A stretch of 64,000 bases of DNA from Diprion similis. Lineage: Eukaryota; Arthropoda; Insecta; Hymenoptera; Diprionidae. The DNA lies in NCBI RefSeq assembly GCF_021155765.1, contig NC_060112.1, positions 8,370,001-8,434,000 on the forward strand. The letters are read 5' to 3'. The notes beneath the pieces were generated by a model that made no database searches, was not told the origin of the DNA, and worked only from the letters and a program-made list of their open reading frames with translations. Shown here in pieces: positions 3,001-64,000 of this stretch (its first letter is position 1; each line of letters starts with the position of its first letter). The translations under genes and the position numbers were made by a program.

Positions 3001-3433
3001 AAAAAGAGCGTCAGACCAACAGGGGAGAAATGACGACGAATATCTTCGGTTTACCGGCTGTAACTTTTGATCCGTTGCTCGCAGCCTATTGGGACTGCGC
3101 TCAGTCAATTCCTCTTGCAAAATTACGTCAAAATAGTGCCCTAAAGAATTTATCGCAGCACTTTTCCGAATCGTCGAAATTTTCGCAAAAAATCCAAAGG
3201 GGTTAGCCTTACTTTTTTGGTCATTTTTGGAGCTGGAAACTTTTCGTCTTGGAATCTATTTGTATGACCATTTCTAGAGTAAATCGACCCCCAGGAACTC
3301 GGAAAACACAAGAAAAAAAGCGTCAGACCAACAGGGGAGAAATGACGACGAAAATCTTCGGTTTTTCGGCTGTAACTTTTGATCCGTTGCTCGCAGCCTA
3401 TTGGGACTGCGCTCAATCGATTCCTCTTGCAAA
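1..3433. repeat. Satellite higher-order repeat copy 1, internally deleted
   Basis: This stretch reads as a 6242-bp, 20-monomer HOR that lost nine monomers. From 1 to about 2200 it matches the sequence 3433 bp further on (start of copy 2). From about 2280 onward it instead matches the sequence 6242 bp further on (end of copy 2). The two offsets differ by 2809 bp, which is nine monomers plus one base. Diagnostic sites are the A in CGTCGGAATAG near 2196, which fits the first alignment, and the C in CTTTCTTGG at 2280, shared with 8522, which fits the second. The crossover therefore lies within 2197-2279. Confidence 0.85.
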
Positions 3434-6400: not shown

Positions 6401-9400
6401 TGAATCGACCCTCAGGAACTCAGAAAACACAAGAAAAAGAGCGTCAGATCAACAGGGGAGAAATGACGACGAAAATCTTCGGTTTTTCGGCTGTAACTTT
6501 TGATCCGTTGCTCGCAGCCTATTGGGACTGCGCTCAATCGATTCCTCTTGCAAAATTACGTCGGAATAGTGCCCTAAAGAATTCATCGCAGCACTTTTCC
6601 AAATCGTCGAAATTTTCGCGAAAAAATCCAAAGGGGTTAGCCTTACTTTTTTGGTCATTTTTGGAGCTGGAAACTTTTCGTCTTGGAATCTATTTGTATG
6701 ACCATTTCTAGAGTAAATCGACCCCCAGGAACTCGGAAAAAACAAGAAAAAGAGCGTCAGACCAACAGGGGAGAAATGACGACGAAAATCTTCGGTTTTT
6801 CGGCTGTAACTTTTGATCCGGTGCTCGCAGCCTATTGGGACTGCGCTCAGTCAATTCCTCTTGCAAAATTACGTCAGAATAGTGCCCTAAAGAAATTATC
6901 GCAGCACTTTTCCGAATCGTCGAAATTTTCGCAAAAAATCCAAAGGGGTTAGCCTTACTTTTTTGGTCATTTTTGGAGCTGGAAACTTTTCATCTTGGAA
7001 TCCATTTGTATGACCATTTCTAGAGTAAATCGACCCCCAGGAACTCGGAAAAAACAAGAAAAAGAGCGTCAGACCAACAGGGGAGAAATGACGACGAAAA
7101 TCTTCGGTTTTTCGGCCGTAACTTTTGATCCGGTGCTCGCAGCCTATTGGGACTGCGCTCAGTCAATTCCTCTTGCAAAATTACGTCAGAATAGTGCCCT
7201 AAAGAATTTATCGCAGCACTTTTCCGAATCGTCGAAATTTTCGCAAAAAATCCAAAGGGGTTAGCCTTACTTTTTCGGTCATTTTTGGAGCTGGAAACTT
7301 TTCGTCTTGGAATCTATTTGTATGACCATTTCTAGAGTAAATCGACCCCCAGGAACTCGGAAAACACAAGAAAAAAAGCGTCAGACCAACAGGGGAGAAA
7401 TGACGACGAAAATCTTCGGTTTTTCGGCTGTAACTTTTGATCCGTTGCTCGCAGCCTATTGGGACTGCGCTCAATCGATTCCTCTTGCAAAATTACGTCG
7501 GGATAGTGCCCTAAAGAATTTATCGCAGCACTTTTCGGAATCGTCGAAATTTTCGCAAAAAATCCAAAGGGGTTAGCCTTACTTTTTTGGTCATTTTTGG
7601 AGCTGGAAACTTTTCGTCTTGGAATCTATTTGTATGACCATTTCTAGAGTAAATCGACCCCCAGGAACTCGGAAAACACAAGAAAAAAAGCGTCAGACCA
7701 ACAGGGGAGAAATGACGACGAAAATCTTCGGTTTTTCGGCTGTAACTTTTGATCCGTTGCTCGCAGCCTATTGGGACTGCGCTCAATCGATTCCTCTTGC
7801 AAAATTACGTCGGGATAGTGCCCTAAAGAATTTATCGCAGCACTTTTCCGAATCGTCGAAATTTTCGCAAAAAATCCAAAGGGGTTAGCCTTACTTTTTT
7901 GGTCATTTTTGGAGCTGGAAATTTTTCGTCTTGGAATCTATTTGTATGACCATTTCTAGAGTAAATCGACCCCCAGGAACTCGGAAAACACAAGAAAAAG
8001 AGCGTCAGACCAACAGGGGAGAAATGACGACGAATATCTTCGGTTTACCGGCTGTAACTTTTGATCCGTTGCTCGCAGCCTATTGGGACTGCGCTCAGTC
8101 AATTCCTTTTGCAAAATTACGTCAAAATAGTGCCCTAAAGAATTTATCGCAGCACTTTTCCGAATCGTCGAAATTTTCGCAAAAAATCCAAAGGGGTTAG
8201 CCTTACTTTTTTGGTCATTTTTGGAGCTGGAAACTTTTCGTCTTGGAATCTATTTGTATGACCATTTCTAGAGTAAATCGACCCCCAGGAACTCGGAAAA
8301 CACAAGAAAAAAAGCGTCAGACCAACAGGGGAGAAATGACGACGAAAATCTTCGGTTTTTCGGCTGTAACTTTTGATCCGTTGCTCGCAGCCTATTGGGA
8401 CTGCGCTCAATCGATTCCTCTTGCAAAATTACGTCGGGATAGTGCCCTAAAGAATTTATCGCAGCACTTTTCCGAATCGTCGAAATTTTCGCAAAAAATC
8501 CAAAGGGGTTAGCCTTACTTTCTTGGTCATTTTTGGAGCTGGAAACTTTTCGTCTTGGAATCTATTTGTATGACCATTTCTAGAGTAAATCGACCCCCAG
8601 GAACTCAGAAAACACAAGAAAAAAAGCGTCAGACCAACAGGGGAGAAATGACGACGAAAATCTTCGGTTTTTCGGCTGTAACTTTTGATCCGTTGCTCGC
8701 ATCCTATTGGGACTGCGCTCAATCGATTCCTCTTGCAAAATTACGTCGGGATAGTGCCCTAAAGAATTTATCGCAGCACTTTTCCGAATCGTCGAAATTT
8801 TCGCAAAAAAACCAAAGGGGTTAGCCTTACTTTTTTGGTCGTTTTTGGAGCTGGAAACTTTTTGTCTTGGAATCGATTTGTATGACCATTTCTAGAGTGA
8901 ATCGACCCCCAGGAACTCAGAAAACACAAGAAAAAGAGCGTCAGACCAACAGGGGAGAAATGACGACGGATATCTTCGGTTTTTCGGCTGTAACTTTTGA
9001 TCCGTTGCTCGCAGCCTATTGGGACTGCGCTCAATCGATTCCTCTTGCAAAATTACGTCGGAATAGTGCCCTAAAGAATTTATCGCAGCACTTTTCCGAA
9101 TCGTCGAAATTTTCGCAAAAAATCCAAAGGGGTTAGCCTTACTTTTTTGGTCATTTTTGGAGCTGGAAACTTTTCGTCTTGGAATCTATTTGTATGACCA
9201 TTTCTAGAGTTAATCGACCCCCAGGAACTCGAAAAACACAGGAAAAAGAGCGTCAGACCAACAGGGGAGAAATGACGACGAATATCTTCGGTTTACCGGC
9301 TGTAACTTTTGATCCGTTGCTCGCAGCCTATTGGGACTGCGCTCAGTCAATTCCTCTTGCAAAATTACGTCAAAATAGTGCCCTAAAGAATTTATCGCAG

Positions 9401-9675
9401 CACTTTTCCGAATCGTCGAAATTTTCGCAAAAAATCCAAAGGGGTTAGCCTTACTTTTTTGGTCATTTTTGGAGCTGGAAACTTTTCGTCTTGGAATCTA
9501 TTTGTATGACCATTTCTAGAGTAAATCGACCCCCAGGAACTCGGAAAACACAAGAAAAAAAGCGTCAGACCAACAGGGGAGAAATGACGACGAAAATCTT
9601 CGGTTTTTCGGCTGTAACTTTTGATCCGTTGCTCGCAGCCTATTGGGACTGCGCTCAATCGATTCCTCTTGCAAA
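3434..9675. repeat. Satellite higher-order repeat copy 2, complete (20 monomers, 6242 bp)
   Basis: Position 3434 is equivalent to positions 1 and 9676; all start ATTACGTCGGGATAG. The unit holds 18 monomers of 312 bp and two of 313 bp, giving 6242. It carries an ordered set of marked monomers: one with TTTATAG in place of TTTATCG (3774-3780), one with TCTTAAAATCG, three with GATCCGGTGCTCG, two with GTGCCTTCAAG, two with TTACCGGC in place of TTTTCGGC, and one with GACGGATATC. Internal duplication is visible: monomers at 4810-5745 resemble those at 5746-6681 (shift of 936 bp, three monomers), and 4186-5100 resembles 6683-7590 (shift of 2497 bp, eight monomers). Confidence 0.9.
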
Positions 9676-12600
9676 ATTACGTCGGGATAGTGCCCTAAAG
9701 AATTTATCGCAGCACTTTTCCGAATCGTCGAAATTTTCGCAAAAAATCCAAAGGGGTTAGCCTTACTTTTTTGGTCGTTTTTGGAGCTGGAAACTTTTTG
9801 TCTTGGAATCGATTTGTATGACCATTTCTAGAGTGAATCGACCCCCAGGAACTCAGAAAACACAAGAAAAAGAGCGTCAGACCAACAGGGGAGAAATGAC
9901 GACGAAAATCTTCGGTTTTTCGGCTGTAACTTTTGATCCGTTGCTCGCAGCCTATTGGGACTGCGCTCAATCTATTCCTCTTGCAAAATTACGTCGGAAT
10001 AGTGCCCTAAAGAATTTATAGCAGCACTTTTCCGAATCGTCGAAATTTTCGCAAAATATCCAAAGGGGTTAGCCTTACTTTTTTGGTCATTTTTGGAGCT
10101 GGAAACTTTTCGTCTTAAAATCGATTTGTATGACCATTTCTAGAGTAAATCGACCCCCAGGAACGTAGAAAACACAAGAAAAAGAGCGTCAGACCAACAG
10201 GGGAGAAATGACGACGAAAATCTTCGGTTTTTCGGCTGTAACTTTTGATCCGTTGCTCGCAGCCTATTGGGACTGCGCTCAATCGATTCCTCTTGCAAAA
10301 TTACGTCGGAATAGTGCCCTAAAGAATTCATCGCAGCACTTTTCCAAATCGTCGAAATTTTCGCGAAAAAATCCAAAGGGGTTAGCCTTACTTTTTTGGT
10401 CATTTTTGGAGCTGGAAACTTTTCGTCTTGGAATCTATTTGTATGACCATTTCTAGAGTAAATCGACCCCCAGGAACTCGGAAAAAACAAGAAAAAGAGC
10501 GTCAGACCAACAGGGGAGAAATGACGACGAAAATCTTCGGTTTTTCGGCTGTAACTTTTGATCCGGTGCTCGCAGCCTATTGGGACTGCGCTCAGTCAAT
10601 TCCTCTTGCAAAATTACGTCAGAATAGTGCCCTAAAGAAATTATCGCAGCACTTTTCCGAATCGTCGAAATTTTTGCAAAAAATCCAAAGGGGTTAGCCT
10701 TACTTTTTTGGTCATTTTTGGAGCTGGAAACTTTTCATCTTGGAATCCATTTGTATGACCATTTCTAGAGTAAATCGACCCCCAGGAACTCGGAAAAAAC
10801 AAGAAAAAGAGCGTCAGACCAACAGGGGAGAAATGACGACGAAAATCTTCGGTTTTTCGGCCGTAACTTTTGATCCGGTGCTCGCAGCCTATTGGGACTG
10901 CGCTCAGTCAATTCCTCTTGCAAAATTACGTCAGAATAGTGCCCTAAAGAATTTATCGCAGCACTTTTCCGAATCGTCGAAATTTTCGCAAAAAATCCAA
11001 AGGGGTTAGCCTTACTTTTTCGGTCATTTTTGGAGCTGGAAACTTTTCGTCTTGGAATCTATTTGTATGACCATTTCTAGAGTAAATCGACCCCCAGGAA
11101 CTCGGAAAACACAAGAAAAAAAGCGTCAGACCAACAGGGGAGAAATGACGACGAAAATCTTCGGTTTTTCGGCTGTAACTTTTGATCCGTTGCTCGCAGC
11201 CTATTGGGACTGCGCTCAATCGATTCCTCTTGCAAAATTACGTCGAAATAGTGCCTTCAAGAATTTATCGCAGCACTTTTCCGAATCGTCGAAATTTTCG
11301 CAAAAAATCCAAAGGGGTTAGCCTTACTTTTTTGGTCATTTTTGGAGCTGGAAACTTTTCGTCTTGGAATCGATTTGTATGACCATTCCTAGAGTAAATC
11401 GACCCCCAGGAACTCAGAAAACACAAGAAAAAAAGCGTCAGACCAACAGGGGAGAAATGACGACGAAAATCTTCGGTTTTTCGGCTGTAACTTTTGATCC
11501 GTTGCTCGCAGCCTATTGGGACTGCGCTCAATCGATTCCTCTTGCAAAATTACGTCGGGATAGTGCCCTAAAGAATTTATCGCAGCACTTTTCGGAATCG
11601 TCGAAATTTTCGCAAAAAATCCAAAGGGGTTAGCCTTACTTTTTTGGACATTTTTGGAGCTGGAAACTTTTCGTCTTGGAATCGATTTGTATGACCATTT
11701 CTAGAGTAAATCGACCCTCAGGAACTCAGAAAACACAAGAAAAAGAGCGTCAGATCAACAGGGGAGAAATGACGACGAAAATCTTCGGTTTTTCGGCTGT
11801 AACTTTTGATCCGTTGCTCGCAGCCTATTGGGACTGCGCTCAATCGATTCCTCTTGCAAAATTACGTCGGAATAGTGCCCTAAAGAATTTATCGCAGCAC
11901 TTTTCCGAATCGTCGAAATTTTCGCAAAAAATCCAAAGGGGTTAGCCTTACTTTTTTGGTCATTTTTGGAGCTGGAAACTTTTCGTCTTGGAATCGATTT
12001 GTATGACCATTTCTAGAGTAAATCGACCCCCAGGAACTCAGAAAACCCAAGAAAAAGAGCGTCAGACCAACAGGGGAGAAATGACGACGAAAATCTTCGG
12101 TTTTTCGGCTGTAACTTTTGATCCGTTGCTCGCAGCCTATTGGGACTGCGCTCAATCGATTCCTCTTGCAAAATTACGTCGAAATAGTGCCTTCAAGAAT
12201 TTATCGCAGCACTTTTCCGAATCGTCGAAATTTTCGCAAAAAATCCAAAGGGGTTAGCCTTACTTTTTTGGTCATTTTTGGAGCTGGAAACTTTTCGTCT
12301 TGGAATCGATTTGTATGACCATTCCCAGAGTGAATCGACCCCCAGGAACTCAGAAAACACAAGAAAAAAAGCGTCAGACCAACAGGGGAGAAATGACGAC
12401 GAAAATCTTCGGTTTTTCGGCTGTAACTTTTGATCCGTTGCTCGCAGCCTATTGGGACTGCGCTCAATCGATTCCTCTTGCAAAATTACGTCGGGATAGT
12501 GCCCTAAAGAATTTATCGCAGCACTTTTCGGAATCGTCGAAATTTTCGCAAAAAATCCAAAGGGGTTAGCCTTACTTTTTTGGACATTTTTGGAGCTGGA

Positions 12601-14760
12601 AACTTTTCGTCTTGGAATCGATTTGTATGACCATTTCTAGAGTGAATCGACCCTCAGGAACTCAGAAAACACAAGAAAAAGAGCGTCAGATCAACAGGGG
12701 AGAAATGACGACGAAAATCTTCGGTTTTTCGGCTGTAACTTTTGATCCGTTGCTTGCAGCCTATTGGGACTGCGCTCAATCGATTCCTCTTGCAAAATTA
12801 CGTCGGAATAGTGCCCTAAAGAATTCATCGCAGCACTTTTCCAAATCGTCGAAATTTTCGCGAAAAAATCCAAAGGGGTTAGCCTTACTTTTTTGGTCAT
12901 TTTTGGAGCTGGAAACTTTTCGTCTTGGAATCTATTTGTATGACCATTTCTAGAGTAAATCGACCCCCAGGAACTCGGAAAAAACAAGAAAAAGAGCGTC
13001 AGACCAACAGGGGAGAAATGACGACGAAAATCTTCGGTTTTTCGGCTGTAACTTTTGATCCGGTGCTCGCAGCCTATTGGGACTGCGCTCAGTCAATTCC
13101 TCTTGCAAAATTACGTCAGAATAGTGCCCTAAAGAAATTATCGCAGCACTTTTCCGAATCGTCGAAATTTTCGCAAAAAATCCAAAGGGGTTAGCCTTAC
13201 TTTTTTGGTCATTTTTGGAGCTGGAAACTTTTCATCTTGGAATCCATTTGTATGACCATTTCTAGAGTAAATCGACCCCCAGGAACTCGGAAAAAACAAG
13301 AAAAAGAGCGTCAGACCAACAGGGGAGAAATGACGACGAAAATCTTCGGTTTTTCGGCCGTAACTTTTGATCCGGTGCTCGCAGCCTATTGGGACTGCGC
13401 TCAGTCAATTCCTCTTGCAAAATTACGTCAGAATAGTGCCCTAAAGAATTTATCGCAGCACTTTTCCGAATCGTCGAAATTTTCGCAAAAAATCCAAAGG
13501 GGTTAGCCTTACTTTTTCGGTCATTTTTGGAGCTGGAAACTTTTCGTCTTGGAATCTATTTGTATGACCATTTCTAGAGTAAATCGACCCCCAGGAACTC
13601 GGAAAACACAAGAAAAAAAGCGTCAGACCAACAGGGGAGAAATGACGACGAAAATCTTCGGTTTTTCGGCTGTAACTTTTGATCCGTTGCTCGCAGCCTA
13701 TTGGGACTGCGCTCAATCGATTCCTCTTGCAAAATTACGTCGGGATAGTGCTCTAAAGAATTTATCGCAGCACTTTTCGGAATCGTCGAAATTTTCGCAA
13801 AAAATCCAAAGGGGTTAGCCTTACTTTTTTGGTCATTTTTGGAGCTGGAAACTTTTCGTCTTGGAATCTATTTGTATGACCATTTCTAGAGTAAATCGAC
13901 CCCCAGGAACTCGGAAAACACAAGAAAAAAAGCGTCAGACCAACAGGGGAGAAATGACGACGAAAATCTTCGGTTTTTCGGCTGTAACTTTTGATCCGTT
14001 GCTCGCAGCCTATTGGGACTGCGCTCAATCGATTCCTCTTGCAAAATTACGTCGGGATAGTGCCCTAAAGAATTTATCGCAGCACTTTTCCGAATCGTCG
14101 AAATTTTCGCAAAAAATCCAAAGGGGTTAGCCTTACTTTTTTGGTCATTTTTGGAGCTGGAAACTTTTCGTCTTGGAATCTATTTGTATGACCATTTCTA
14201 GAGTAAATCGACCCCCAGGAACTCGGAAAACACAAGAAAAAGAGCGTCAGACCAACAGGGGAGAAATGACGACGAATATCTTCGGTTTACCGGCTGTAAC
14301 TTTTGATCCGTTGCTCGCAGCCTATTGGGACTGCGCTCAGTCAATTCCTTTTGCAAAATTACGTCAAAATAGTGCCCTAAAGAATTTATCGCAGCACTTT
14401 TCCGAATCGTCGAAATTTTCGCAAAAAATCCAAAGGGGTTAGCCTTACTTTTTTGGTCATTTTTGGAGCTGGAAACTTTTCGTCTTGGAATCTATTTGTA
14501 TGACCATTTCTAGAGTAAATCGACCCCCAGGAACTCGGAAAACACAAGAAAAAAAGCGTCAGACCAACAGGGGAGAAATGACGACGAAAATCTTCGGTTT
14601 TTCGGCTGTAACTTTTGATCCGTTGCTCGCAGCCTATTGGGACTGCGCTCAATCGATTCCTCTTGCAAAATTACGTCGGGATAGTGCCCTAAAGAATTTA
14701 TCGCAGCACTTTTCCGAATCGTCGAAATTTTCGCAAAAAATCCAAAGGGGTTAGCCTTAC
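9676..14760. repeat. Satellite higher-order repeat copy 3, truncated (about 16 monomers)
   Basis: This repeats copy 2 at an offset of exactly 6242 bp. I spotted only three differences: T at 12755 for C at 6513, T at 13752 for C at 7510, and C at 14164 for T at 7922. The match ends about 14755-14770, where TTTTTTGGTCGTTTTTGG replaces the expected TTTCTTGGTCATTTTTGG of copy 2. Identity is therefore well above 99% across about 5 kb, which points to very recent amplification or homogenisation, or to an assembly that duplicated one HOR. Confidence 0.9.
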
Positions 14761-17700
14761 TTTTTTGGTCGTTTTTGGAGCTGGAAACTTTTTGTCTTGG
14801 AATCGATTTGTATGACCATTTCTAGAGTGAATCGACCCCCAGGAACTCAGAAAACACAAGAAAAAGAGCGTCAGACCAACAGGGGAGAAATGACGACGAA
14901 AATCTTCGGTTTTTCGGCTGTAACTTTTGATCCGTTGCTCGCAGCCTATTGGGACTGCGCTCAATCGATTCCTCTTGCAAAATTACGTCGGAATAGTGCC
15001 CCAAAGAATTTATCGCAGCACTTTTCCGAATCGTCGAAATTTTCGCAAAAAATCCAAACGGGTTAGCCTTACTTTTTTGGTCATTTTTGGAGCTGGAAAC
15101 TTTTCGTCTTGGAATCTATTTGTATGACCATTTCTAGAGTAAATCGACCCCCAGGAACTCGGAAAACACAAGAAAAAGAGCGTCAGACCAACAGGGGAGA
15201 AATGACGACGAATATCTTCGGTTTACCGGCTGTAACTTTTGATCCGTTGCTCGCAGCCTATTGGGACTGCGCTCAGTCAATTCCTCTTGCAAAATTACGT
15301 CAAAATAGTGCCCTAAAGAATTTATCGCAGCACTTTTCCGAATCGTCGAAATTTTCGCAAAAAATCCAAAGGGGTTAGCCTTACTTTTTTGGTCATTTTT
15401 GGAGCTGGAAACTTTTCGTCTTGGAATCTATTTGTATGACCATTTCTAGAGTAAATCGACCCCCAGGAACTCGGAAAACACAAGAAAAAAAGCGTCAGAC
15501 CAACAGGGGAGAAATGACGACGAAAATCTTCGGTTTTTCGGCTGTAACTTTTGATCCGTTGCTCGCAGCCTATTGGGACTGCGCTCAATCGATTCCTCTT
15601 GCAAAATTACGTCGGGATAGTGCCCTAAAGAATTTATCGCAGCACTTTTCCGAATCGTCGAAATTTTCGCAAAAAATCCAAAGGGGTTAGCCTTACTTTT
15701 TTGGTCATTTTTGGAGCTGGAAACTTTTCGTCTTGGAATCTATTTGTATGACCATTTCTAGAGTAAATCGACCCCCAGGAACTCGGAAAACACAAGAAAA
15801 AGAGCGTCAGACCAACAGGGGAGAAATGACGACGAATATCTTCGGTTTACCGGCTGTAACTTTTGATCCGTTGCTCGCAGCCTATTGGGACTGCGCTCAG
15901 TCAATTCCTTTTGCAAAATTACTTCAAAATAGTGCCTTAAAGAATTTATCGCAGCACTTTTCCGAATCGTCGAAATTTTCGCAAAAAATCCAAAGGGGTT
16001 AGCCTTACTTTTTTGGTCATTTTTGGAGCTGGAAACTTTTCGTCTTGGAATCTATTTGTATGACCATTTCTAGAGTAAATCGACCCCCAGGAACTCGGAA
16101 AACACAAGAAAAAAAGCGTCAGACCAACAGGGGAGAAATGACGACGAAAATCTTCGGTTTTTCGGCTGTAACATTTGATCCGTTGCTCGCAGCCTATTGG
16201 GACTGCGCTCAATCGATTCCTCTTGCAAAATTACGTCGGGATAGTGCCCTAAAGAATTTATCGCAGCACTTTTCCGAATCGTCGAAATTTTCGCAAAAAA
16301 TCCAAAGGGGTTAGCCTTACTTTTTTGGTCGTTTTTGGAGCTGGAAACTTTTTGTCTTGGAATCGATTTGTATGACCATTTCTAGAGTGAATCGACCCCC
16401 AGGAACTCAGAAAACACAAGAAAAAGAGCGTCAGACCAACAGGGGAGAAATGACGACGAAAATCTTCGGTTTTTCGGCTGTAACTTTTGATCCGTTGCTC
16501 GCAGCCTATTGGGACTGCGCTCAATCGATTCCTCTTGCAAAATTACGTCGGAATAGTGCCCCAAAGAATTTATCGCAGCACTTTTCCGAATCGTCGAAAT
16601 TTTCGCAAAAAATCCAAAGGGGTTAGCCTTACTTTTTTGGTCATTTTTTGAGCTGGAAACTTTTCGTCCTAAAATCGATTTGTATGACCATTTCTAGAGT
16701 AAATCGACCTCCAGGAACTCAGAAAACACAAGAAAAAGAGCGTCAGACCAACAGGGGAGAAATGACGACGAAAATCTTCGGTTTTTCGGCTGTAACTTTT
16801 GATCCGTTGCTCGCAGCCTATTGGGACTGCGCTCAATCGATTCCTCTTGCAAAATTACGTCGGGATAGTGCCCTAAAGAATTTATCGCAGCACTTTTCCG
16901 AATCGTCGAAATTTTCGCAAAAAATCCAAAGGGGTTAGCCTTACTTTTTTGGTCATTTTTGGAGCTGGAAACTTTTCGTCTTGGAATCTATTTGTATGAC
17001 CATTTCTAGAGTAAATCGACCCCCAGGAACTCGGAAAACACAAGAAAAAGAGCGTCAGACCAACAGGGGAGAAATGACGACGAAAATCTTCGGTTTTTCG
17101 GCTGTCACTTTTGATCCGTTGCTCGCAGCCTATTGGGACTGCGCTCAATCGATTCCTCTTGCACAATTACGTCGGAATAGTGCCCTGAAGAATTTATCGC
17201 AGCACTTTTCCAAATCGTCGAAATTTTCGAAAAAAATCCAAAGGGGTTAGCCTTACTTTTTTGGTCATTTTTGGAGCTGGAAACTTTTCGTCTTGGAATC
17301 TATTTGTATGACCATTTCTAGAGTAAATCGACCCCCAGGAACTCGGAAAACACAAGAAAAAGAGCGTCAGACCAACAGGGGAGAAATGACGTCGAAAATC
17401 TTCGGTTTTTCGGCTGTAACTTTTGATCCGTTGCTCGCAGCCTATTGGGACTGCGCTCAGTCAATTCCTCTTGCAAAATTACGTCAGAATAGTGCCCTAC
17501 AGAATCTATCGCAGCACTTTTCTGAATCGTCGAAATTTTCGCAAAAAATCCAAAGGGGTTAGCCTTACTTTTTTGGTCATTTTTAGAGCTGGAAACTTTT
17601 CGTCTTGGAATCGATTTGTATGACCATTTCTAGAGTAAATCGACCCCCAGGAACTCAGAAAACACAAGAAAAAGAGCGTCAGACCAACAGGGGAGAAATG

Positions 17701-18602
17701 ACGACGAAAATCTTCGGTTTTTCGGCTGTAACTTTTGATCCGTTGCTCGCAGCCTATTGGGACTGCGCTCAATCGATTCCTCTTGCAAAATTACGTCGGA
17801 ATAGGGCCCTAAAGAATTTACCGCAGCACTTTTCCGAATCGTCGAAATTTTCGCAAAAAATCTAAAGGGGTTAGCCTTACTTTTTCGGTCATTTTTGGAG
17901 CTGGAAACTTTTCGTCTTGGAATCGATTTGTATGACCATTTCTAGAGTAAATCGACCCCCAGGAACTCAGAAAACACAAGAAAAAGAGCGTCAGACCAAC
18001 AGGGGAGAAATGACGACGAAAATCTTTGGTTTTTCGGCTGTAACTTTTGATTTGTTGCTCGCAGCCCATCAGGACTGCGCTTAATCCATTCCTCTTGCAA
18101 AATCACGTCGGAATAGTGCGCGAAAGAATTGATCGCAGCTTTTTTCCGAATCGTCGAAATTTTCGCAAAAAATCCAAAGGGGTTAGCCTTACTTTTTTGG
18201 TCATTTTTGGAGCTGGTAACTTTTCGTCTTGGAATCGATTTTTATGACCATTTCCAGAGTAAATCGACCCTCAGGAACTCAGAAAACACAAGAAAAAGAG
18301 CGTCAGACCAACAGGGGAGAAATGACGACGACAATCTTCGGATTGTCGGCTGTAACTTTTGATCCGTTGCTCGCAGCCTATTGGGACTGCGCTCAATCGA
18401 TTCCTTTTGCAAAATTACGTCGGAATAGTGCCCTAAAGAATTTATCGCAGCACTTTTCCGAATCGTCGAAATTTTCGCAAAAAATCCAAAGGGGTTAGCC
18501 TCACTTTTTTGGTCATTTTTCTAGCTGGAAACTTTTCGTCTTGGAATCGATTTGTATGACCATTTCTAGAGTAAATCGACCCCCAGGAACTCAGAAAACA
18601 CA
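14761..18602. repeat. Irregular edge of the satellite array
   Basis: After HOR copy 3 breaks off, monomers no longer follow the 20-mer order. A shorter five-monomer block (1560 bp) is visible: monomers at 14173, 14485 and 14797 resemble those at 15733, 16045 and 16357, including the shared GTGCCCCAAAG variant. From about 17100 single-monomer changes accumulate. They are densest at 18000-18240, with TTTGATTTGTTGC, CCCATCAGGACTGCGC and GCGCGAAAGAATTG. Rising divergence towards the end of an array is the usual pattern, because homogenisation weakens there. Confidence 0.85.
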
Positions 18603-47400: not shown

Positions 47401-49862
47401 CTCTTGGCTGCTTGCACCTTCGGTCTTTCTATGTCGAGCGGTCTCTTCATCCCTTCACTTTTGATTGGTGCTGCCTGGGGTAGATTAGTTGGATCCGGCC
47501 TTTCCAAGTTGTGGCCTAACTGTGTAAGAAATTTCACATGATTATACTATATTTACAATTTGAAACTGTTAAGCTCCACATCACTCTCTTTTCAGGACAT
47601 CTTTGATCCCAGAAAATATGCACTATTGGGTGCAGCTGCTCAGCTTGGCGGTGTAGTTAGAATGACAATCAGCTTAACTGTAATTCTTATAGAGGCAACT
47701 GATGGAATATTCTTTGGTCTTCCACTTATCATTGTACTCTTAATGGCAAAATGGGTTGGTGATTTCTTCAATGAGGTATGTACTTGTTAAATTGTAAGTG
47801 TTGAATACTGTGGCAATTGAGTCAATTTCTACTATCAATACTAGTAATTGTAGAGTCCATCTATTGGTAACTGAGTCAGTTGAATTTAACATGTGCGATA
47901 TTGATATACTGAATAACTTTTCATGAATCTCGTAAAACATTGTCACCCAACCATAAGAACAATTCAAATAGTTATCCAGCCATCTCATTTACAATCAGGT
48001 CACCCAACCATAAGAACAATTCAAATAGTTATCCAGCCATCTCATTTACAATCAGATCAACACAGTTTTAAATTGTAATGAAATATTTTAATTAAACCAG
48101 GGTATTTATGAGATTCACATACAAATGACCGGAGTACCCATATTACCATGGGAACCTCCACCGTTATCAAACAATATTTATGCAAGTGAAATAATGAGTC
48201 ATCCTGTGGTTACACTGAAAACTGTTGAAAACGTCGGCCATATAGTCGAGCTTCTAAAATGTGTTTCATTCAATGGATTTCCTGTTGTTGACCCGCCAAC
48301 AAGTGATCAGGTATGAATCAAGGACTTTCAACTAAATTTGTAAACTTCAATCGCTTTCATCAACTTTTTATGATGATAAGTCCCGTTTTTATGAAAGAAA
48401 ATCATGGAATCCCAAGCATATAGTTGATAGTAGTTATAAAGAAGTCTAAGTTACTTAAATGTGTATTTCAGGAAGAAATAAATTGCTACGGGCGGTTCAG
48501 AGGCTTGATTTTGCGATCTCAGTTAATTGTTTTACTACAGAAAAAAATATTCAACGAATACAGCGAATATTGGGATGAATTTCTGAATATCGAAATGTTC
48601 AGAAACGAGTATCCTCGATATTCTACTATTGACCATGTCAATCTTACCGCAGACGAAAAAACTTACAAAATGGATTTGCGACCCTTTATGAATCCATCAC
48701 CATATACAGTTCAACATGTAAGAATATTTTATGATTCTTCGATCTTAATTATTTTTGCATCAAAGTGTATGCTGCAAGTACATACACATGCACACAATGA
48801 TTCTGAAACGACTATTTTTGCACAAGTCATTTCGGTTTTTAGTAGCCAACCTTCTTGAAAAAAAAAAAAAAACTTGATATCAACTTATATCCCAAATTAA
48901 TAGACGATGTAAATGAAAAGTTGTGTTTTCCATTATTTATTTACTTTTGCTACTAGTTCAAAAAATGAGATTGATCTTAAATCAACTACACTTAATCGTT
49001 TGATATTGTCTTTATTATCATTGTTTTTGTCACTTTGAACATTAATTAATTCTTCGATTCTTATGTTTATACATAATGTTTATTGTTTTTGATAATTACA
49101 CCACCGCGTATAACTTGTTTCAAATTCTTAGGCAACTGGTAAACTGCATTGCACAAAATGCAGAGTTTTCGCCGACCACTTTAAACTAAAAAGTGTAAAA
49201 TATAAAAAATTTTCTAGATTGTAAAAGAAATTGAGAACTGTATTAAGTGAAATAGATAACGAGAAAAATGTCCGTCAAGAAAACATTCTAAATACATGGT
49301 ATCGTTTCAGTCTGCCACTTTACCACGGGTATTCAGTCTCTTCAGGGCCTTGGGACTGCGCCACCTACCAGTAGTCAATGATACAAATGAGGTAAGCCCA
49401 CCTACTATGTATATTCTGTAAATTAAACACTCAGTCTTTTAAAACGCTTTACAAAAAACTTTCTGATATTGGTATTGTCACCTATAACTGAAAATCTACA
49501 TCTGGTCAATCAAAAACCACTATGTAAGGGGTATGTGCATGAAACAAATTCAATGACTAGCATTTACAAGTAAATACGAAAAAACAGTAACTTATTTGAA
49601 AACATCGCTGTTATTTACATAGTTCAGTATGTTGAGTTGGACTGAATAAGATATCGAAAAAATTAAAAATTGTCATGAGCGTTAATTCTTGAATGGTCAC
49701 GAGTCTTCACGTCATATAGTAATTGAACATGGAAGTCATACATTGGCACGTTTATTTCAGGTGATTGGAATGGTGACCCGAAAGGACATAGCCAGATTTC
49801 GAATTTGGAGGCATCAGGGGCGAATGGGTTTAGATGAACTTTTGATATCAGATAAACTCTAA
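41436..49862 (+). CDS. CLCN7: H+/Cl- exchange transporter 7 (ClC-7), 12 exons
   Basis: Exons: 41436-41579, 41642-41770, 42434-42632, 43312-43565, 44190-44367, 44818-45342, 47354-47523, 47596-47775, 48101-48310, 48472-48717, 49311-49391, 49761-49862. All are GT-AG with matching phases, and the total is 805 aa, the length I recall for human ClC-7. Landmarks: an acidic dileucine motif DYDKLL (residues 23-28) of lysosomal-sorting type; the ClC-7 signature [17 protein letters not shown]; the anion filter GSGIP (199-203); the gating glutamate in [10 protein letters not shown] (E243); the proton glutamate in GVLFSIEEG (E310); [16 protein letters not shown]; and two C-terminal CBS domains (about 618-680 and 735-795, with MNPSPYTV and GLVTRKD-like GMVTRKD). 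The protein exchanges two Cl- for one H+ across lysosomal membranes, with OSTM1 as partner in animals. All key residues are intact. Confidence 0.97.
47942..48055. repeat. Perfect 57-bp tandem duplication in a CLCN7 intron
   Basis: The 57-bp unit starting GTCACCCAACCATAAG occurs twice with no mismatch (47942-47998 and 47999-48055), ending 45 bp before exon 9. Identity suggests a recent duplication or an assembly artefact. It does not touch the acceptor site. Confidence 0.95.
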
Positions 49863-53294: not shown

Positions 53295-53864
53295 ATGAAC
53301 AGATACCTGAGACGCACAAAAGTACTTAAGACGATGCCAAAGAAGAAAAACCAAAGTTCGAAAGCGAAAAGTGTTAGATCAACTATACAAAGTAACGGTA
53401 AACCAACACCTCGACCTTATGAAACCGAAGAAGAAGCAATAATTCGACGTTTTCACGATGCTCAGCGAATGGCAAGATTTCGAGCTAAACGAAAAAAGGC
53501 TCTGGAACAAAGCGAGACACTAGAATCATCAGAATTTACGAACACGACTGTTGTATCTGAGACAAAGAAGGGAAACGTAATATTACAACTAACTGAACCT
53601 TTTATCATGGTTTCTAATCCAAGAACAATTCAATCTATGTCTGCGCAAAGGTTTGAACAAAGACCGACAATACATATACCTTTAGTTCCTAACCAAAGCA
53701 AGTACTCCCAACTTCTAAGTGTTATTGAAGAACTTGGCAAAGACATTCGACTAACTTATGCTGGAAGCCGCACGTCGGTTGAACGACTCAAAGCGGGCAT
53801 CGTACGTGCCAAATTATTAGTTAGAGATTGCCTTTTAGAGACTGAAGTGAATTCTAAATTATAA
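53295..53864 (+). CDS. CDK2AP/DOC-1 domain protein, short paralogue (intronless)
   Basis: A single open frame of 189 aa. Residues 1-40 are basic and low-complexity. Residues 43-71 form a charged helical motif, [20 protein letters not shown] then RAKRKKALE. Residues 72-134 are a Ser/Thr-rich linker. Residues 136-189 are a CDK2AP (DOC-1) domain: [34 protein letters not shown] and [13 protein letters not shown]-1 family proteins bind CDK2 and are subunits of the NuRD chromatin-remodelling complex; that role is inferred here from the domain. Mammalian CDK2AP1 is shorter (about 115 aa), has several exons and lacks the basic motif. The second gene, 1.9 kb downstream on the same strand, has the same two-part plan. 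An in-frame ATG at codon 14 (MPKKKNQ) is an alternative start. AATAAA lies at 54183-54188. The DNA-binding look of the basic motif (faintly like insect STPR repeats) is only a suggestion. Confidence 0.88.
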
Positions 53865-54690
53865 TAGGTAAAGACTTTTAATTTAGAAAAGTATACATCA
53901 TAATCCCTGTTCCTCATTTTATATAAAACCTCCGAGCATGGATTGATGTTATAGTCATAATTGGTATACAAATAGTTTGAGCTATTGAGATATGCACACT
54001 TATAGAGTAATCAGATCTACCAAATTTTAAATGATTAGACAGCGTTCCGATGTAATGCAAATTTTCAATTATGTAATATTTGAAATGTATTGAAGTTTAA
54101 GTCTGTATTTTGTATACCCTAATTTTTAGAAATGAAAGTTGAAGAAGTAGTGGATATTCAATTAATTTCTTAGGTTGGAGTGAATAAAATCTTACAATTC
54201 ATGTATGTTTCTAGTGATATCACATTCCTTTTTGACACTTCGGAACAGTGACCAAAACGATGGAAGATTATTATTGCCCTTTTGGCCATTAGAGGGAGAC
54301 TCAACAAACCACCTGAATGTTGTTTCAGTGTGTCGTACTAAAAATCCACATACATAAAAAAAATCTTTTCTGTCTGACCGCGTCCGTCAAGACGTCCGAA
54401 CAAAATCGACTTCATAATAGTTCATAATGGGCAGATAGTTACGTCAACCAAAGTGTGTTGTCATTTAGATTGCTGCATGGATGCTTTTTCAAAGTTATTT
54501 CACTACAATCAACGTGAATCCAATTCCAATACATCACGCACTGCATGTGATTCCGTTAGATCCCAATTTCACAGGCTTATAGAGATAAACTACGTGGTCT
54601 AACGGGGCCGCTGGAGCCAAAACCACAGAGTTTACGAAGCATCTCGATGAGCGCTCGCAAGCGTAGCGGCCAATTTCTGGCGAACTGATG

Positions 54691-54840
54691 TTGTGGGAAG
54701 TTTTAAATACGTATAAGTAGGTAGAAACGTTGATGTTATATGATGAACATATAACAATATTGGCTTATAACATGTTTATTTATTAACATCAACGTTTCTA
54801 CCTTATACTTACACGCGTGTGTTTAATAAACTTCCCACAA
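54691..54840. repeat. 150-bp MITE-like hairpin element
   Basis: Ends are inverted copies: TTGTGGGAAGTTT at 54691 and its complement, ending CTTCCCACAA, at 54840. Inside, GTAGAAACGTTGATGTTA (54721-54738) is matched by TAACATCAACGTTTCTAC near 54784-54801. The arms cover most of the element around an AT-rich centre. No coding capacity; no clear target-site duplication. Confidence 0.85.
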
Positions 54841-55060
54841 TTTCGGTTCGTAAAAAAATGGGGGCCAAAGTGGAAGCAATTGACTGGACATCGAAGTCCG
54901 TTTTGTAGGGATTCCAGGTGCGCGTTCCGAAATTGGTTAGGAGCGCTAAAAACTCCCTATAACAGAGATACAGCTACTCACGAACCCGGGAGTACAGAAG
55001 AGATAAAAGATTGTTGACAGCACTGGGAGCTAATTTTGAAATGCACAGTACATTTACACA

Positions 55061-55150
55061 GCACCGTTATTCCGGTTTGACTATGGTCGACGTAGAATCG
55101 ATAAATCTGGTATTACTTCATCAGCCATATAGTAAACCGGAATAACAGCG
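55061..55150. repeat. 90-bp imperfect inverted repeat
   Basis: GTTATTCCGGTTT near 55066 and AAACCGGAATAAC near 55134 are perfect reverse complements within imperfect arms of about 26 bp (55061-55086 and 55125-55150) around a 38-bp loop. Confidence 0.75.
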
Positions 55151-55793
55151 TCTGTACTCATTGGTGGATTTCACATGTGGTCGGCGTTGAGGCTGGTAGC
55201 TAATTTCGGAACACACCCAAGGCCTCTGGTTAAATCGATGCGATATAAACTTGGCTGATAAACGCAGCCATTGATGTAGGAAGCCATTCATGCACGCAGC
55301 CTATCGGTGAACTTGGTTGGCCCCTCGAAGACTGAAGTGCAGAGTCTGTATTAAGATCTTACATGTTGTTCGAACTCGCGACTCAGCGTGTGTTATTCAG
55401 TGATCAGTTCATATTGCGAAGATATTTTACCGTACCTGAGATCCGATTCGGCTCACCGATAGTGCCTGACTTCGGGAAGGTATGCGATGTTGCGGTGAGG
55501 CTAAATTTTCAATGTTCAAGAAATCGGCCGAGTTTTGTCAGCCATTGTTGTGATTAAGGTGAAGACTTGATACACGAAAAGAAAGAGATCATACCAGTAC
55601 TAAATTGTGTTGAGTCCGTACGCATGCGCAGTTTACATTACGCAAAGAGATGTTGATGTTTGAACTGAAAAGATGAAACACTTTTCGGGGAATCGTTGCG
55701 GCATGATGCACCTTGTGTTTTGCTCACTGATAAGCAGAAGTTTTACCTCGCGGAGGTAAGAGGATATTGCGTGCTAATCCAAGAAAATAATTA

Positions 55794-56969
55794 ATGTCAG
55801 AAGCAATTGAGGAGCGGGCACTAAGGTTATACTCAACAGCTGATAGGATGAAGAATGCCAGAGCCAAAGAGACAGAAGAGCAAGCTGCTCTTAGAAGGAT
55901 GCAAGAAGCACAGAGAATGGCCAGGCACCGAGCTAAGAAGAAGAGATGTCTTGACGAAAACTTAGCCAGAGAAATATCGAAAATCGCAGAGCTTTCAAAA
56001 ATCCCGGACGCAGCGACCATTGCTCAGATGTCAGAAATGAATATGAATAAAATTTCGGCAGAGTTGAAGCAAATGATGGAAAGGGGTAAAGTGCCAGAGC
56101 ATATAGTTCAAATGGCTCAGCTTGCTGAATTTAGCAAAATGACAGAATTACATAAGATCTCAACGGACATGGGAAAGCGGTACGAGATGGAGAAGATGGC
56201 AGAGTATGCCAAGACGGCGGAATACATAAAAATGCAGGAAATAGCTAAAATGAGCGAAATGGTGAAGCTATCCGAGATGGCAAAGTACAATGATATATCG
56301 AAAATGAATGAGATAGCTAAGATGAATGAACTGATGAAAATGTCTCAGATGGCTAAAATCAATGAGGTTCAACGGATGAATGAGATAGCAAAGCTAAACG
56401 AAATGGTAAAGATGACTGAGATGGCGAAGTACAACAATGATATTGCCAAACTAACAGAAATAGCTCAGATCAATGAAGTTGCCAAGGAAATTGCCAAAAT
56501 GAATGAGAAGACAAAAATGAATGAGATGATGAAGTTAGCTAATGTTCAGAATGACGTTACGAAAATGCCCGAGTACTCAAAAATGGCAGAAATGGCCAAG
56601 CTCACGGAACTTGCCAAGCTTAACGAAATAACAATTACAAAGTTGAATGACCCTACTCCTCCTAAGATCCATGATATTCCTCGTATTCCGGAGCCTGTAA
56701 TTAATGTACCTAACCCACGTAACCTGCAGAGTGTTCAAACTGTTCAAACCGCTCAAGCCAGCCCGTCGAGCACGATAAACTTTCCGTCGGTGCCTGGGCA
56801 AGGAAAGTACGCCCAACTATTGGTGATAATAGAAGAACTTGGACGAGACATCCGCCTCTCATATGCTGGAAGCCGCAGTGCCGCAGAGCGGCTTAAAATG
56901 GGTATTCAACATGCCCGGATTCTTGTCCGAGAATGCCTCCTTGAAACTGAGCATAACGCTAGGCAATGA
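55794..56969 (+). CDS. CDK2AP/DOC-1 domain protein with long six-residue repeat (intronless)
   Basis: A single open frame of 391 aa starting [13 protein letters not shown], with an in-frame stop just upstream. Residues 26-54 are a basic helical motif, [20 protein letters not shown] then RAKKKRCLD, closely matching the upstream paralogue. Residues about 103-285 are Met/Lys/Glu/Ala-rich, and from about 133 follow a six-residue period ([24 protein letters not shown]). Residues 286-335 are a Pro-rich linker ([15 protein letters not shown]). Residues 338-391 are a CDK2AP/DOC-1 domain: [34 protein letters not shown] and [14 protein letters not shown]. By eye the domain is about two thirds identical to that of the upstream gene. 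DOC-1 proteins bind CDK2 and join the NuRD complex, so a nuclear, chromatin-linked role is inferred. The repeat has no counterpart I know in the family. AATAAA lies at 57643-57648. Confidence 0.9.
56190..56642 (+). repeat. Coding 18-bp-period repeat (about 25 degenerate hexapeptides)
   Basis: This DNA encodes residues 133-283 of the long DOC-1 domain protein. The peptide follows K-[ML]-x-E-[IMLV]-[AV], with hydrophobic residues every third position and Lys and Glu at fixed places. Occasional insertions ([21 protein letters not shown]) break the register. Codons vary between units (AAA/AAG, GAA/GAG, ATA/ATC/ATG), so the repeat is not freshly copied. Confidence 0.85.
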
Positions 56970-62900: not shown

Positions 62901-64000
62901 TAGCATTAAAATTAGGCCACTTTTCTACCCCCGAACAATTCTAGTACATCTGGTTCTCAAAATTTCGCAGTTTATAATTCAGTATGGTTCTGAAATACAG
63001 TATATCTATTTACACTTGAATTCAAGAAAGGATAATGAAAACTCATATTTCGAGCATAAAATACACAACAGATCTCTTTTATTAAAGCATTCCACACATT
63101 AAGCTGCCAACATAATCAAATTTAATCAAGAATGAAGAATGGCCCAATGGATGAAACTACACATCAGAAGCTCTATACATATACTTGTAAAAAGCAAATA
63201 GACACCCTTAGAAGTTTCAACAGCCCTGCGTGATCCGGAGGTCAGAACTCTCCAAATTAACAAATTAGTGTGTGTGTGTGCCAGTATTATTCAGTAATAT
63301 TTCGTTACCGAACCGTTCCACCGTACTGACTGATGACCGGCGATCGCTATTTTATACTCGTAGATAACATTCACTTAATGAATTATAGTAATTTCTGGTA
63401 ATTGTAAATTTTTGAGGTCCTAATTATGAGGAAGAAACGCCAAATAAATTATTCTGAAATAAGGAGTGTTTCAGCTCAAAAGAGCGGAAAAAACTACGGC
63501 AAATCAATTTTGATTTCTACAAAACATTGAGTGTGACTATGAAAAATGATAGAATAGGCTGGTACCGATCGCGCTCCAACAGCTGTGCCGAAACACATCT
63601 TTCTACCATAAACGTAAACCCACGTTAGTTTGGAGTGTCTTTTTCCTTAAAATATCATAATTTTAATTAATGAAGAAAGAATCATTTGATTGAATTCTCG
63701 TTGACCCCCGTTATTGTAGCAAACGCAATTGAGTTTTCGAAGAAGCGCCGAACTGTATTGCCATCAATGGTACTGCCGAATCCAGGCTTTGGATAATTGA
63801 CGATTAGTCCTGATTCCGTACGGAAGCCTTTTTTAACAACCCTTTTTTGTGACGTACATAGGGACTAACGTTTTTTTTTTTTTAACCATTATGTATAGGC
63901 CGGGGCTAACGTTTTTTTTTTTTTAAACCATTAGGTAAGGCCGGGACTAACGTTATTCCGATTTTGTGGAGACGAACACATCCGGTCAGCCGTCTTATTC
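56970..64000. other. Seven-kilobase gene-poor region
   Basis: After the 3' UTR and AATAAA (57643-57648) of the long DOC-1 domain gene I see no exon I can support. Features are a weak inverted repeat (60526-60539 with 60803-60816, TTGTCTTCGAGTTT), scattered GTCAGGGAA-like motifs near 60030 and 60395-60445, a short (TG)6 tract at 63269-63280 and the tandem repeat at 63861-63952. A frame near 61280 encodes a hydrophobic stretch (MAILLLLLSVTLET) but ends after about 70 codons without family resemblance. Confidence 0.5.
63861..63952. repeat. 41-bp tandem repeat with T-runs (about 2.2 copies)
   Basis: GGGACTAACG plus a T12-14 run and AACCATTA recurs at 63861, 63902 and 63943 (period 41). The second copy has GGGGCTAACG and the third is cut short. 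It may continue past related sequence beyond the window, but the last 50 bases do not. Confidence 0.8.

What the first reader, a model, noticed from the sequence alone, without database searches (positions are those of the whole stretch)
53295..56969. Tandem intronless DOC-1 proteins with a new N-terminal basic module
Both genes pair the same basic motif (ETEE..A..RR...AQRMARxRAK) with a C-terminal CDK2AP/DOC-1 domain about two thirds identical between them. Known CDK2AP1 is short, multi-exon and lacks the motif. Loss of introns suggests origin from a retrocopy, followed by gain of the module and local duplication. A NuRD-linked DOC-1 domain tied to a possible DNA- or RNA-binding helix would be a new architecture, perhaps lineage-specific.
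Basis: partly seen in the sequence, partly recalled or inferred. Interest (0 to 1): 0.8.

Follow-up and report, generated by a model that had tools for sequence, protein, structure and literature searches.

The report
Insect DOC-1 pair with STPR-like repeats
Two neighbouring intronless genes in this insect look like its own versions of DOC-1, a chromatin-complex subunit, and each carries a short 23-residue helix of a kind already known from DNA-binding proteins and mobile elements; the pairing, not the helix, is the interesting part.

Summary
In detail: two intact intronless coding frames (A 53295-53864, 189 aa; B 55794-56969, 391 aa) end in a DOC-1/CDK2AP domain (Pfam E 1.9e-15 and 9.8e-15), 38 of 57 residues identical, and share a 23-residue basic motif, 16 of 23 identical.

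The motif is not new but STPR-like: B has two in-register 23-mers, 11 of 23 identical (0 of 20000 shuffles), with the E4 and R9 positions described for STPR. It is below Pfam's STPR cut-off, and most tests on A's single copy failed. Its nearest relatives found here are repeats of Helitron-type elements (profile score 31.1; best of 200 permutations 17.2).

No third DOC-1 domain was found in the 269 Mb genome, so these are probably the organism's own CDK2AP genes. Synonymous sites are saturated: the duplication is old. A retrocopy is neither shown nor excluded.

Most likely (inferred): NuRD subunits with their own DNA-touching helix. B also has a 184-residue linker with Lys and Glu alternating at spacing three.

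The parts
53295..53864 (+). Gene A: intact frame, 189 aa, one STPR-like 23-mer plus C-terminal DOC-1 domain
53421..53489 (+). A residues 43-65, single STPR-like 23-residue repeat (E1, E4 and R9 positions kept)
   Evidence: sequence; 16 of 23 identical to B's; predicted helix 45-76 in a low-confidence single-sequence model; not recognised on its own by Pfam, HMM or PSSM
53691..53858 (+). DOC-1/CDK2AP domain of A (residues 133-188)
55794..56969 (+). Gene B: intact frame, 391 aa, two STPR-like 23-mers, K/E-periodic linker, DOC-1 domain
55800..55868 (+). B residues 3-25, first STPR-like 23-mer
   Evidence: 11 of 23 identities with the next copy; 0 of 20000 shuffles at lag 23; Pfam STPRs match 3-47, sub-threshold
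55869..55937 (+).
56097..56648 (+). B residues 102-285: hexad-type linker, Lys and Glu alternating at spacing 3; predicted long helix 102-255
   Evidence: 39 K/E pairs at spacing 3, shuffle mean 7.3, maximum 16 in 2000 shuffles; DNA repeats of 18/36/72 nt
56799..56963 (+). DOC-1/CDK2AP domain of B (residues 336-390)
   Evidence: predicted helices 336-357 and 361-390
54669..54868 (+). Dispersed palindromic repeat (MITE-like) in the spacer between the genes
   Evidence: inverted arms; copies elsewhere at 67-81% identity, on both strands
54922..55046 (+). Second dispersed repeat of about 125 bp in the spacer
   Evidence: copies elsewhere at 74-85% identity (40 of 351 candidates were scored)

Best explanation
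A and B are very probably the insect's own CDK2AP/DOC-1 genes, an old tandem pair whose coding frames carry no introns. Each protein joins a STPR-like basic helix (one repeat in A, two in B) to a DOC-1 domain, which in human CDK2AP1 forms a dimeric four-helix bundle. The likely working is that the DOC-1 end dimerises (A-A, B-B or A-B) and docks on the Mi-2/NuRD remodeller, while the basic helix touches DNA, so that a peripheral NuRD subunit brings its own DNA contact; in B a long charged helix spaces the two ends. Shown: frames, domains, copy number found in the assembly, 23-residue periodicity of B, key residues, presence of two NuRD partner domains in the genome. Inferred: NuRD membership, dimerisation, DNA contact, spacer role.
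For: DOC-1 domain far over threshold in both. No third DOC-1 domain with three different queries over the 269 Mb assembly. Tyr63, Cys105, Thr109 and Glu110 of human CDK2AP1 are kept in both (alignment; roles from passages of PMC11875312). Drosophila CG18292, the DOC1 homologue, co-purifies with NuRD (passages of PMC4942838 and PMC4139204). Two NuRD partner domains are in this genome: P66_CC and CHDCT2 (that these mark p66/GATAD2 and CHD3/4-type proteins is recalled). Tandem 23-residue period in B with E4 and R9 in each copy (sequence), the period and salt bridge reported for STPR (passages of PMC4821344). Profile of the A/B module against Helitron-borne repeats: 91%, score 31.1, best of 200 column permutations 17.2; those element repeats match the host STPR repeats (86%), and the L004 copy passes Pfam's STPR cut-off (29 against 27 bits). 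Synonymous sites saturated with dN 0.28 (domain) and 0.24 (motif).
Against: The module is below Pfam's STPR cut-off: B1-55 14.3 against 27 bits, A's 41-aa piece not listed at E up to 10; STPRs was not listed for the whole proteins at E up to 1. A narrow HMM from the host STPR protein did not find it. With a PSSM from canonical repeats, shuffles of the same composition did as well in 578 of 5000 (A) and 704 of 5000 (B) cases. The element repeats are uneven as STPR: L005's frame scores 15.5 bits, below the cut-off, and STPRs is not listed for L020's 502-aa piece at E up to 0.1. Elements compared were partly chosen as best matches of B, which the permutations do not correct. A has only one repeat; FMBP-1 has four. 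Structure models are single-sequence and weak (pTM 0.24 and 0.34). No transcript, binding or pull-down data.
Confidence: 0.6

Rival explanations
1. The N-terminal segment is just a basic helix or nuclear localisation signal, and the likeness to STPR is a matter of composition.
For: A's segment best matches a nuclear-localisation model, weakly (E 0.044, below its cut-off); the three PSSM tests on A are not significant and four of five local alignments of A36-75 give z 0.3-1.4.
Against: Exact 23-residue tandem period in B (0 of 20000 shuffles); profile match of the A/B module to element repeats above all 200 permutations; B against L015 and L019 z 8.2 and 8.3, 0 of 2000 shuffles each; A against L019 z 3.3, 9 of 2000.
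Confidence: 0.2
2. Retrocopy origin: an ancient processed CDK2AP copy replaced the intron-bearing parent and was then duplicated locally.
For: Both coding frames lack introns; no other DOC-1 domain found. The human gene being multi-exon is recalled.
Against: No parent found. Synonymous sites are saturated, so poly-A tracts or target-site duplications would be gone; I saw none by eye but ran no search for them. Simple intron loss or an intron-poor insect ancestor explains it equally.
Confidence: 0.2
3. The module came from a Helitron-type mobile element: a DNA-binding repeat of an element was fused to DOC-1.
For: Outside the window, 6 of the 7 matches of B1-55 in the genome are repeats of one Helitron-type family (E 0.08 to 0.64; the seventh is gag-like, E 4.2), identified by PF14214 E 1.9e-8 on L020. 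Closer to them (z up to 8.3) than to the host STPR protein (z 0.6; profiles 91% against 8.6%).
Against: None of the single genome-wide matches is significant alone; 40 residues are too short for a tree; capture in the other direction or shared descent from an unsampled host STPR protein fits too. The dispersed repeats in the spacer were not identified as this element.
Confidence: 0.25
4. The proteins act mainly as CDK2-binding inhibitors (the p12 role of human CDK2AP1), not in chromatin.
For: Same domain family; Cys105, Thr109 and Glu110 kept.
Against: Arg111 of the proposed CDK2 site Thr109-Glu110-Arg111 is His in B and Val in A; the basic N-terminus (pI 10.0-10.8) suggests a nuclear role.
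Confidence: 0.08

Closest known systems
CDK2AP1/CDK2AP2 (DOC-1), human; CG18292 of Drosophila
   Same: C-terminal DOC-1 domain: B's is 73% identical to human CDK2AP1 and 66% to CDK2AP2, with Tyr63 and Cys105 kept
   Different: In human CDK2AP1 the structured part is residues 61-115 with a disordered 60-residue N-terminus; here the N-terminus carries STPR-like repeats, and B a K/E-periodic linker; Arg111 not kept. The sequence of CG18292 was not seen.
FMBP-1 / STPR domain (Pfam PF21107)
   Same: 23-residue period (B), E1, E4 and R9 positions, basic, predicted helix
   Different: One or two repeats instead of four; below Pfam's cut-off; attached to DOC-1
STPR-bearing Helitron-type elements of the same genome (L004, L015, L019, L020 and others)
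   Same: Closest sequence matches of the module found here (ADRMKN.RAKE core, then E[ST]EE)
   Different: In L020 the repeats precede a Helitron_like_N domain; here a DOC-1 domain
Host STPR protein at C1:5839211-5839471 (L006)
   Same: Same kind of repeat, six listed copies
   Different: Multi-repeat protein in which no DOC-1 domain was found; the module is not specially close to it (z 0.6)

Membership tests
CDK2AP/DOC-1 (PF09806) | C-terminal DOC-1 domain over the curated cut-off | tested here: met
   58.1 and 55.8 bits against 26.2
CDK2AP/DOC-1 (PF09806) | Tyr63 and Cys105 (human numbering) | tested here: met
   Invariant columns Y7 and C49 of four sequences; roles
CDK2AP/DOC-1 (PF09806) | Dimeric four-helix bundle | not testable with these tools
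   Single-sequence monomer models show the two helices only
NuRD subunit | Physical association with the Mi-2/CHD4 complex | not testable with these tools
   Partner domains P66_CC and CHDCT2 exist in the genome; the MBD_C search did not complete
CDK2-binding p12 function | Thr109-Glu110-Arg111 site | tested here: not met
   T and E kept, Arg111 is His (B) or Val (A)
STPR domain (PF21107) | Tandem 23-residue repeats | tested here: met
   B only: 11 of 23 at lag 23, 0 of 20000 shuffles. A has a single copy and so does not meet it
STPR domain (PF21107) | Glu at 4 and Arg at 9 of each repeat | tested here: met
   B E6/R11 and E29/R34; A E46/R51 (sequence; rule)
STPR domain (PF21107) | Pfam curated cut-off (27 bits) | tested here: not met
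   B1-55 14.3 bits, E 0.058; A's piece not listed. Hence called STPR-like, not filed under PF21107
STPR domain (PF21107) | DNA binding | not testable with these tools
   -
Retrocopy | Intron-bearing parent gene elsewhere | tested here: not met
   Only two DOC-1 domains found; a parent lost later, or cut into very short exons, cannot be excluded

The most novel reading that the evidence does not exclude
A DNA-binding repeat of a Helitron-type mobile element was fused to DOC-1 before an old duplication, giving an insect lineage whose every DOC-1 subunit carries a transposon-derived DNA contact that could steer the Mi-2/NuRD remodeller, perhaps to element DNA; B adds an unusual long helix with Lys and Glu alternating at every third residue as a spacer.
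Probability: 0.18. Interest if true: 0.75.

Novelty: new variant of a known kind. Interest (0 to 1): 0.45.

Why it matters
DOC-1 is a small, loosely bound NuRD subunit whose part in targeting is, to my knowledge, unclear. A lineage in which every DOC-1 found carries its own candidate DNA-touching module would let the question 'does DOC-1 tie Mi-2 to DNA?' be tested directly, and would be a case of a repeat known from transcription factors and mobile elements joined to a chromatin-complex subunit. In the library searched, no listed paper joins STPR and CDK2AP.

Tried and rejected
Narrow HMM from five repeats of the host STPR protein: no significant score (A 0.2, B -2.9 bits; shuffles reach 9.8 and 8.8), too specific to be useful. 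A pattern E[TS].E....R....A.R fits both and only 17 and 43 of 100000 shuffles, but it was drawn up after seeing the sequences and is not used as evidence. PSSM tests against 5000 shuffles each: canonical repeats only, A 578 and B 704 as good; element repeats only, A 937 and B 31; both, A 1835 and B 267. Against 242 other open stretches of the window, B tops every one with each PSSM, A only with the canonical one. The Pfam STPRs search of the genome did not list A or B among its 6 scored candidates, and one of its 14 control genomes gave a sub-threshold match. Relatives of the DOC-1 domain in viral contigs and genome contigs: 161 and 70 pattern matches, none confirmed (viral and prokaryote collections, so little is learnt). 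Pfam NOP5NT (just under its cut-off) and PDB internalin/Rab-family matches in B's linker are taken as low-complexity matches. A 45-bp intron-like stretch over the start of B (donor-like 55756, acceptor-like 55800) was considered and set aside: too short, and stops lie upstream in its frame (read by eye).

Literature: passages only were seen of PMC4821344, PMC6849634, PMC4942838, PMC4139204 and PMC11875312; PMC12518275 holds none of the terms CDK2AP, DOC1, DOC-1; PMC548367 and PMC8246863 are not held. Search listings only. In one search two papers hold both CDK2AP and Helitron and one holds CDK2AP and 'score and three'; from their titles these look incidental and were not opened. No paper holds CDK2AP1 with 'TER motif'.

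Organism: the COX1 frame (L024) looks hymenopteran to me; that is recalled, not tested.
Full report
What is there. Both end in a CDK2AP/DOC-1 domain: Pfam PF09806 58.1 and 55.8 bits, cut-off 26.2, and human CDK2AP1 and CDK2AP2 structures at E 4e-18 to 6e-17. The domains are identical at 38 of 57 residues, the shared basic motif at 16 of 23.

Copy number. Three six-frame searches of the window's own 269 Mb, 60-contig genome found DOC-1 domains only in these two genes: B as query at E up to 0.001, the Pfam model at E up to 10 (a third match, E 1.36, lies at profile positions 7-50, outside the part that matches the DOC-1 domain, with a stop inside) and A's domain alone at E up to 10. The tool scores only its best candidates, and a DOC-1 domain cut into very short exons could be missed; but the same tool found the 44-position P66_CC domain and CHDCT2 split over two places. 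These are therefore probably the organism's own CDK2AP genes, and no intron-bearing relative was found.

The motif. It is 23 residues long, begins with E and has E at 4 and R at 9. STPR repeats of the silkworm protein FMBP-1 are 23 residues long, four in tandem, with a salt bridge between E4 and R9 of each repeat (passages of PMC4821344). Pfam's STPRs model is the best match of B1-55, but at E 0.058 and 14.3 bits, below its cut-off of 27, and it is not listed for the whole protein at E up to 1. A's single copy is not recognised on its own by Pfam, by a narrow HMM or by PSSMs against shuffles. I therefore call the module STPR-like and do not file it under PF21107.

Nearest relatives of the module. 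B1-55 searched over the whole genome found, outside the window, seven places: six belong to one Helitron-type family (E 0.08 to 0.64) and one is gag-like by eye (E 4.2). A 251-residue piece of one element (L020) has 38 matched stretches in the genome, several per copy, and a 502-residue piece of it carries Helitron_like_N at E 1.9e-8. The L004 copy passes Pfam's STPR cut-off with 29 bits; the L005 frame, 15.5 bits, does not, and STPRs was not listed for L020's piece at E up to 0.1. Local alignment of B1-55 with five frames: L015 z 8.2 and L019 z 8.3 (0 of 2000 shuffles each), L020 z 6.0 (0 of 2000), L004 z 3.8 (5 of 2000), host STPR protein on C1 z 0.6 (586 of 2000); for A36-75 the values in the same order are 1.4, 3.3, 1.1, 0.3 and 1.1. 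Targets were partly chosen as best genome matches of B, which inflates z. Profile against profile: the two-sequence A/B module with seven element repeats 91%, score 31.1 over 29 columns, against a best of 17.2 in 200 column permutations; module with six host STPR repeats 8.6%, score 16.0, reached by 1 of 200; element repeats with host repeats 86%. The chain module - element repeats - STPR is thus reasonable, and the module is nearer to the elements than to the host protein. Direction of transfer is open.

Age and selection. Between A and B the domain has dN 0.28 and dS 3.2, the motif dN 0.24 with dS beyond calculation. The duplication is old, and the motif has been kept about as well as the domain. 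The spacer holds two dispersed repeats, 54669-54868 (palindromic) and 54922-55046.

Function. In human CDK2AP1 residues 61-115 form a homodimeric four-helix bundle; Cys105 and Tyr63 interact, Thr109-Glu110-Arg111 is a proposed CDK2 site, and C-termini of CHD3 and CHD4 are named as reported partners (passages of PMC11875312). A and B keep Tyr63, Cys105, Thr109 and Glu110, not Arg111. The Drosophila homologue CG18292 co-purifies with NuRD as a loosely bound subunit (passages of PMC4942838 and PMC4139204). With two NuRD partner domains present here, a NuRD role is the best guess. The N-terminal parts are basic (pI 10.0 to 10.8) and are predicted as helices (A 45-76, B 2-67; single-sequence models of low overall confidence, pTM 0.34 and 0.24). 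That they touch DNA is inference from STPR.

The linker of B. In residues 102-285, Lys and Glu alternate at spacing three: 39 opposite-charge pairs at spacing 3 (and 32 at spacing 9), none at spacings 2, 4, 6 and 8, against a shuffle mean of 7.3 and maximum of 16 at spacing 3 (2000 shuffles). Net charge of residues 60-285 is near zero. A continuous helix 102-255 is predicted. A has a short linker instead. At DNA level this shows as degenerate 18/36/72-nt repeats.

Verdict. Known parts in an unusual combination: new variant of a known kind. The word 'new' in the title of the finding should move from the module to the pairing. No listed paper in the library searched joins STPR and CDK2AP, but insect proteomes could not be searched, so the architecture may be common in the order and simply unremarked.

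Noticed in passing
1-18602: Satellite array of a 312-bp unit, 59.6 copies, 96% matches, filling the first 18.6 kb of the window.
   Followed up: no
56097-56648: B's linker: Lys and Glu alternate at spacing three over 184 residues (39 pairs against a shuffle mean of 7.3), an unusual helix-forming pattern.
   Followed up: partly
54669-54868 and 54922-55046: Two dispersed repeats between the genes, the first palindromic (MITE-like), with copies on many contigs.
   Followed up: partly
L020 (match at G000:C14:844581-844706): A 770-aa open frame joining a weak Ulp1-protease-like stretch (PF02902 E 0.0018, below cut-off), STPR-like repeats and Helitron_like_N.
   Followed up: partly
L006 (G000:C1:5839211-5839471, minus): Host protein with six listed 23-residue STPR repeats in a 484-aa frame.
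   Followed up: partly
G000:C7:8182164-8182700: COX1-like stretch on another contig besides C45, the 25-kb contig with the long COX1 frame; probably a nuclear copy of mitochondrial DNA.
   Followed up: no
about 22900-48900: Neighbouring exons look like SNRNP27, FANCI, IFT46 and a ClC chloride channel (names recalled from reading translations, not tested).
   Followed up: no
47942-48059 and 63861-63954: Short tandem duplications, 57-bp unit (2.1 copies, 98%) and 41-bp unit (2.3 copies, 90%).
   Followed up: no
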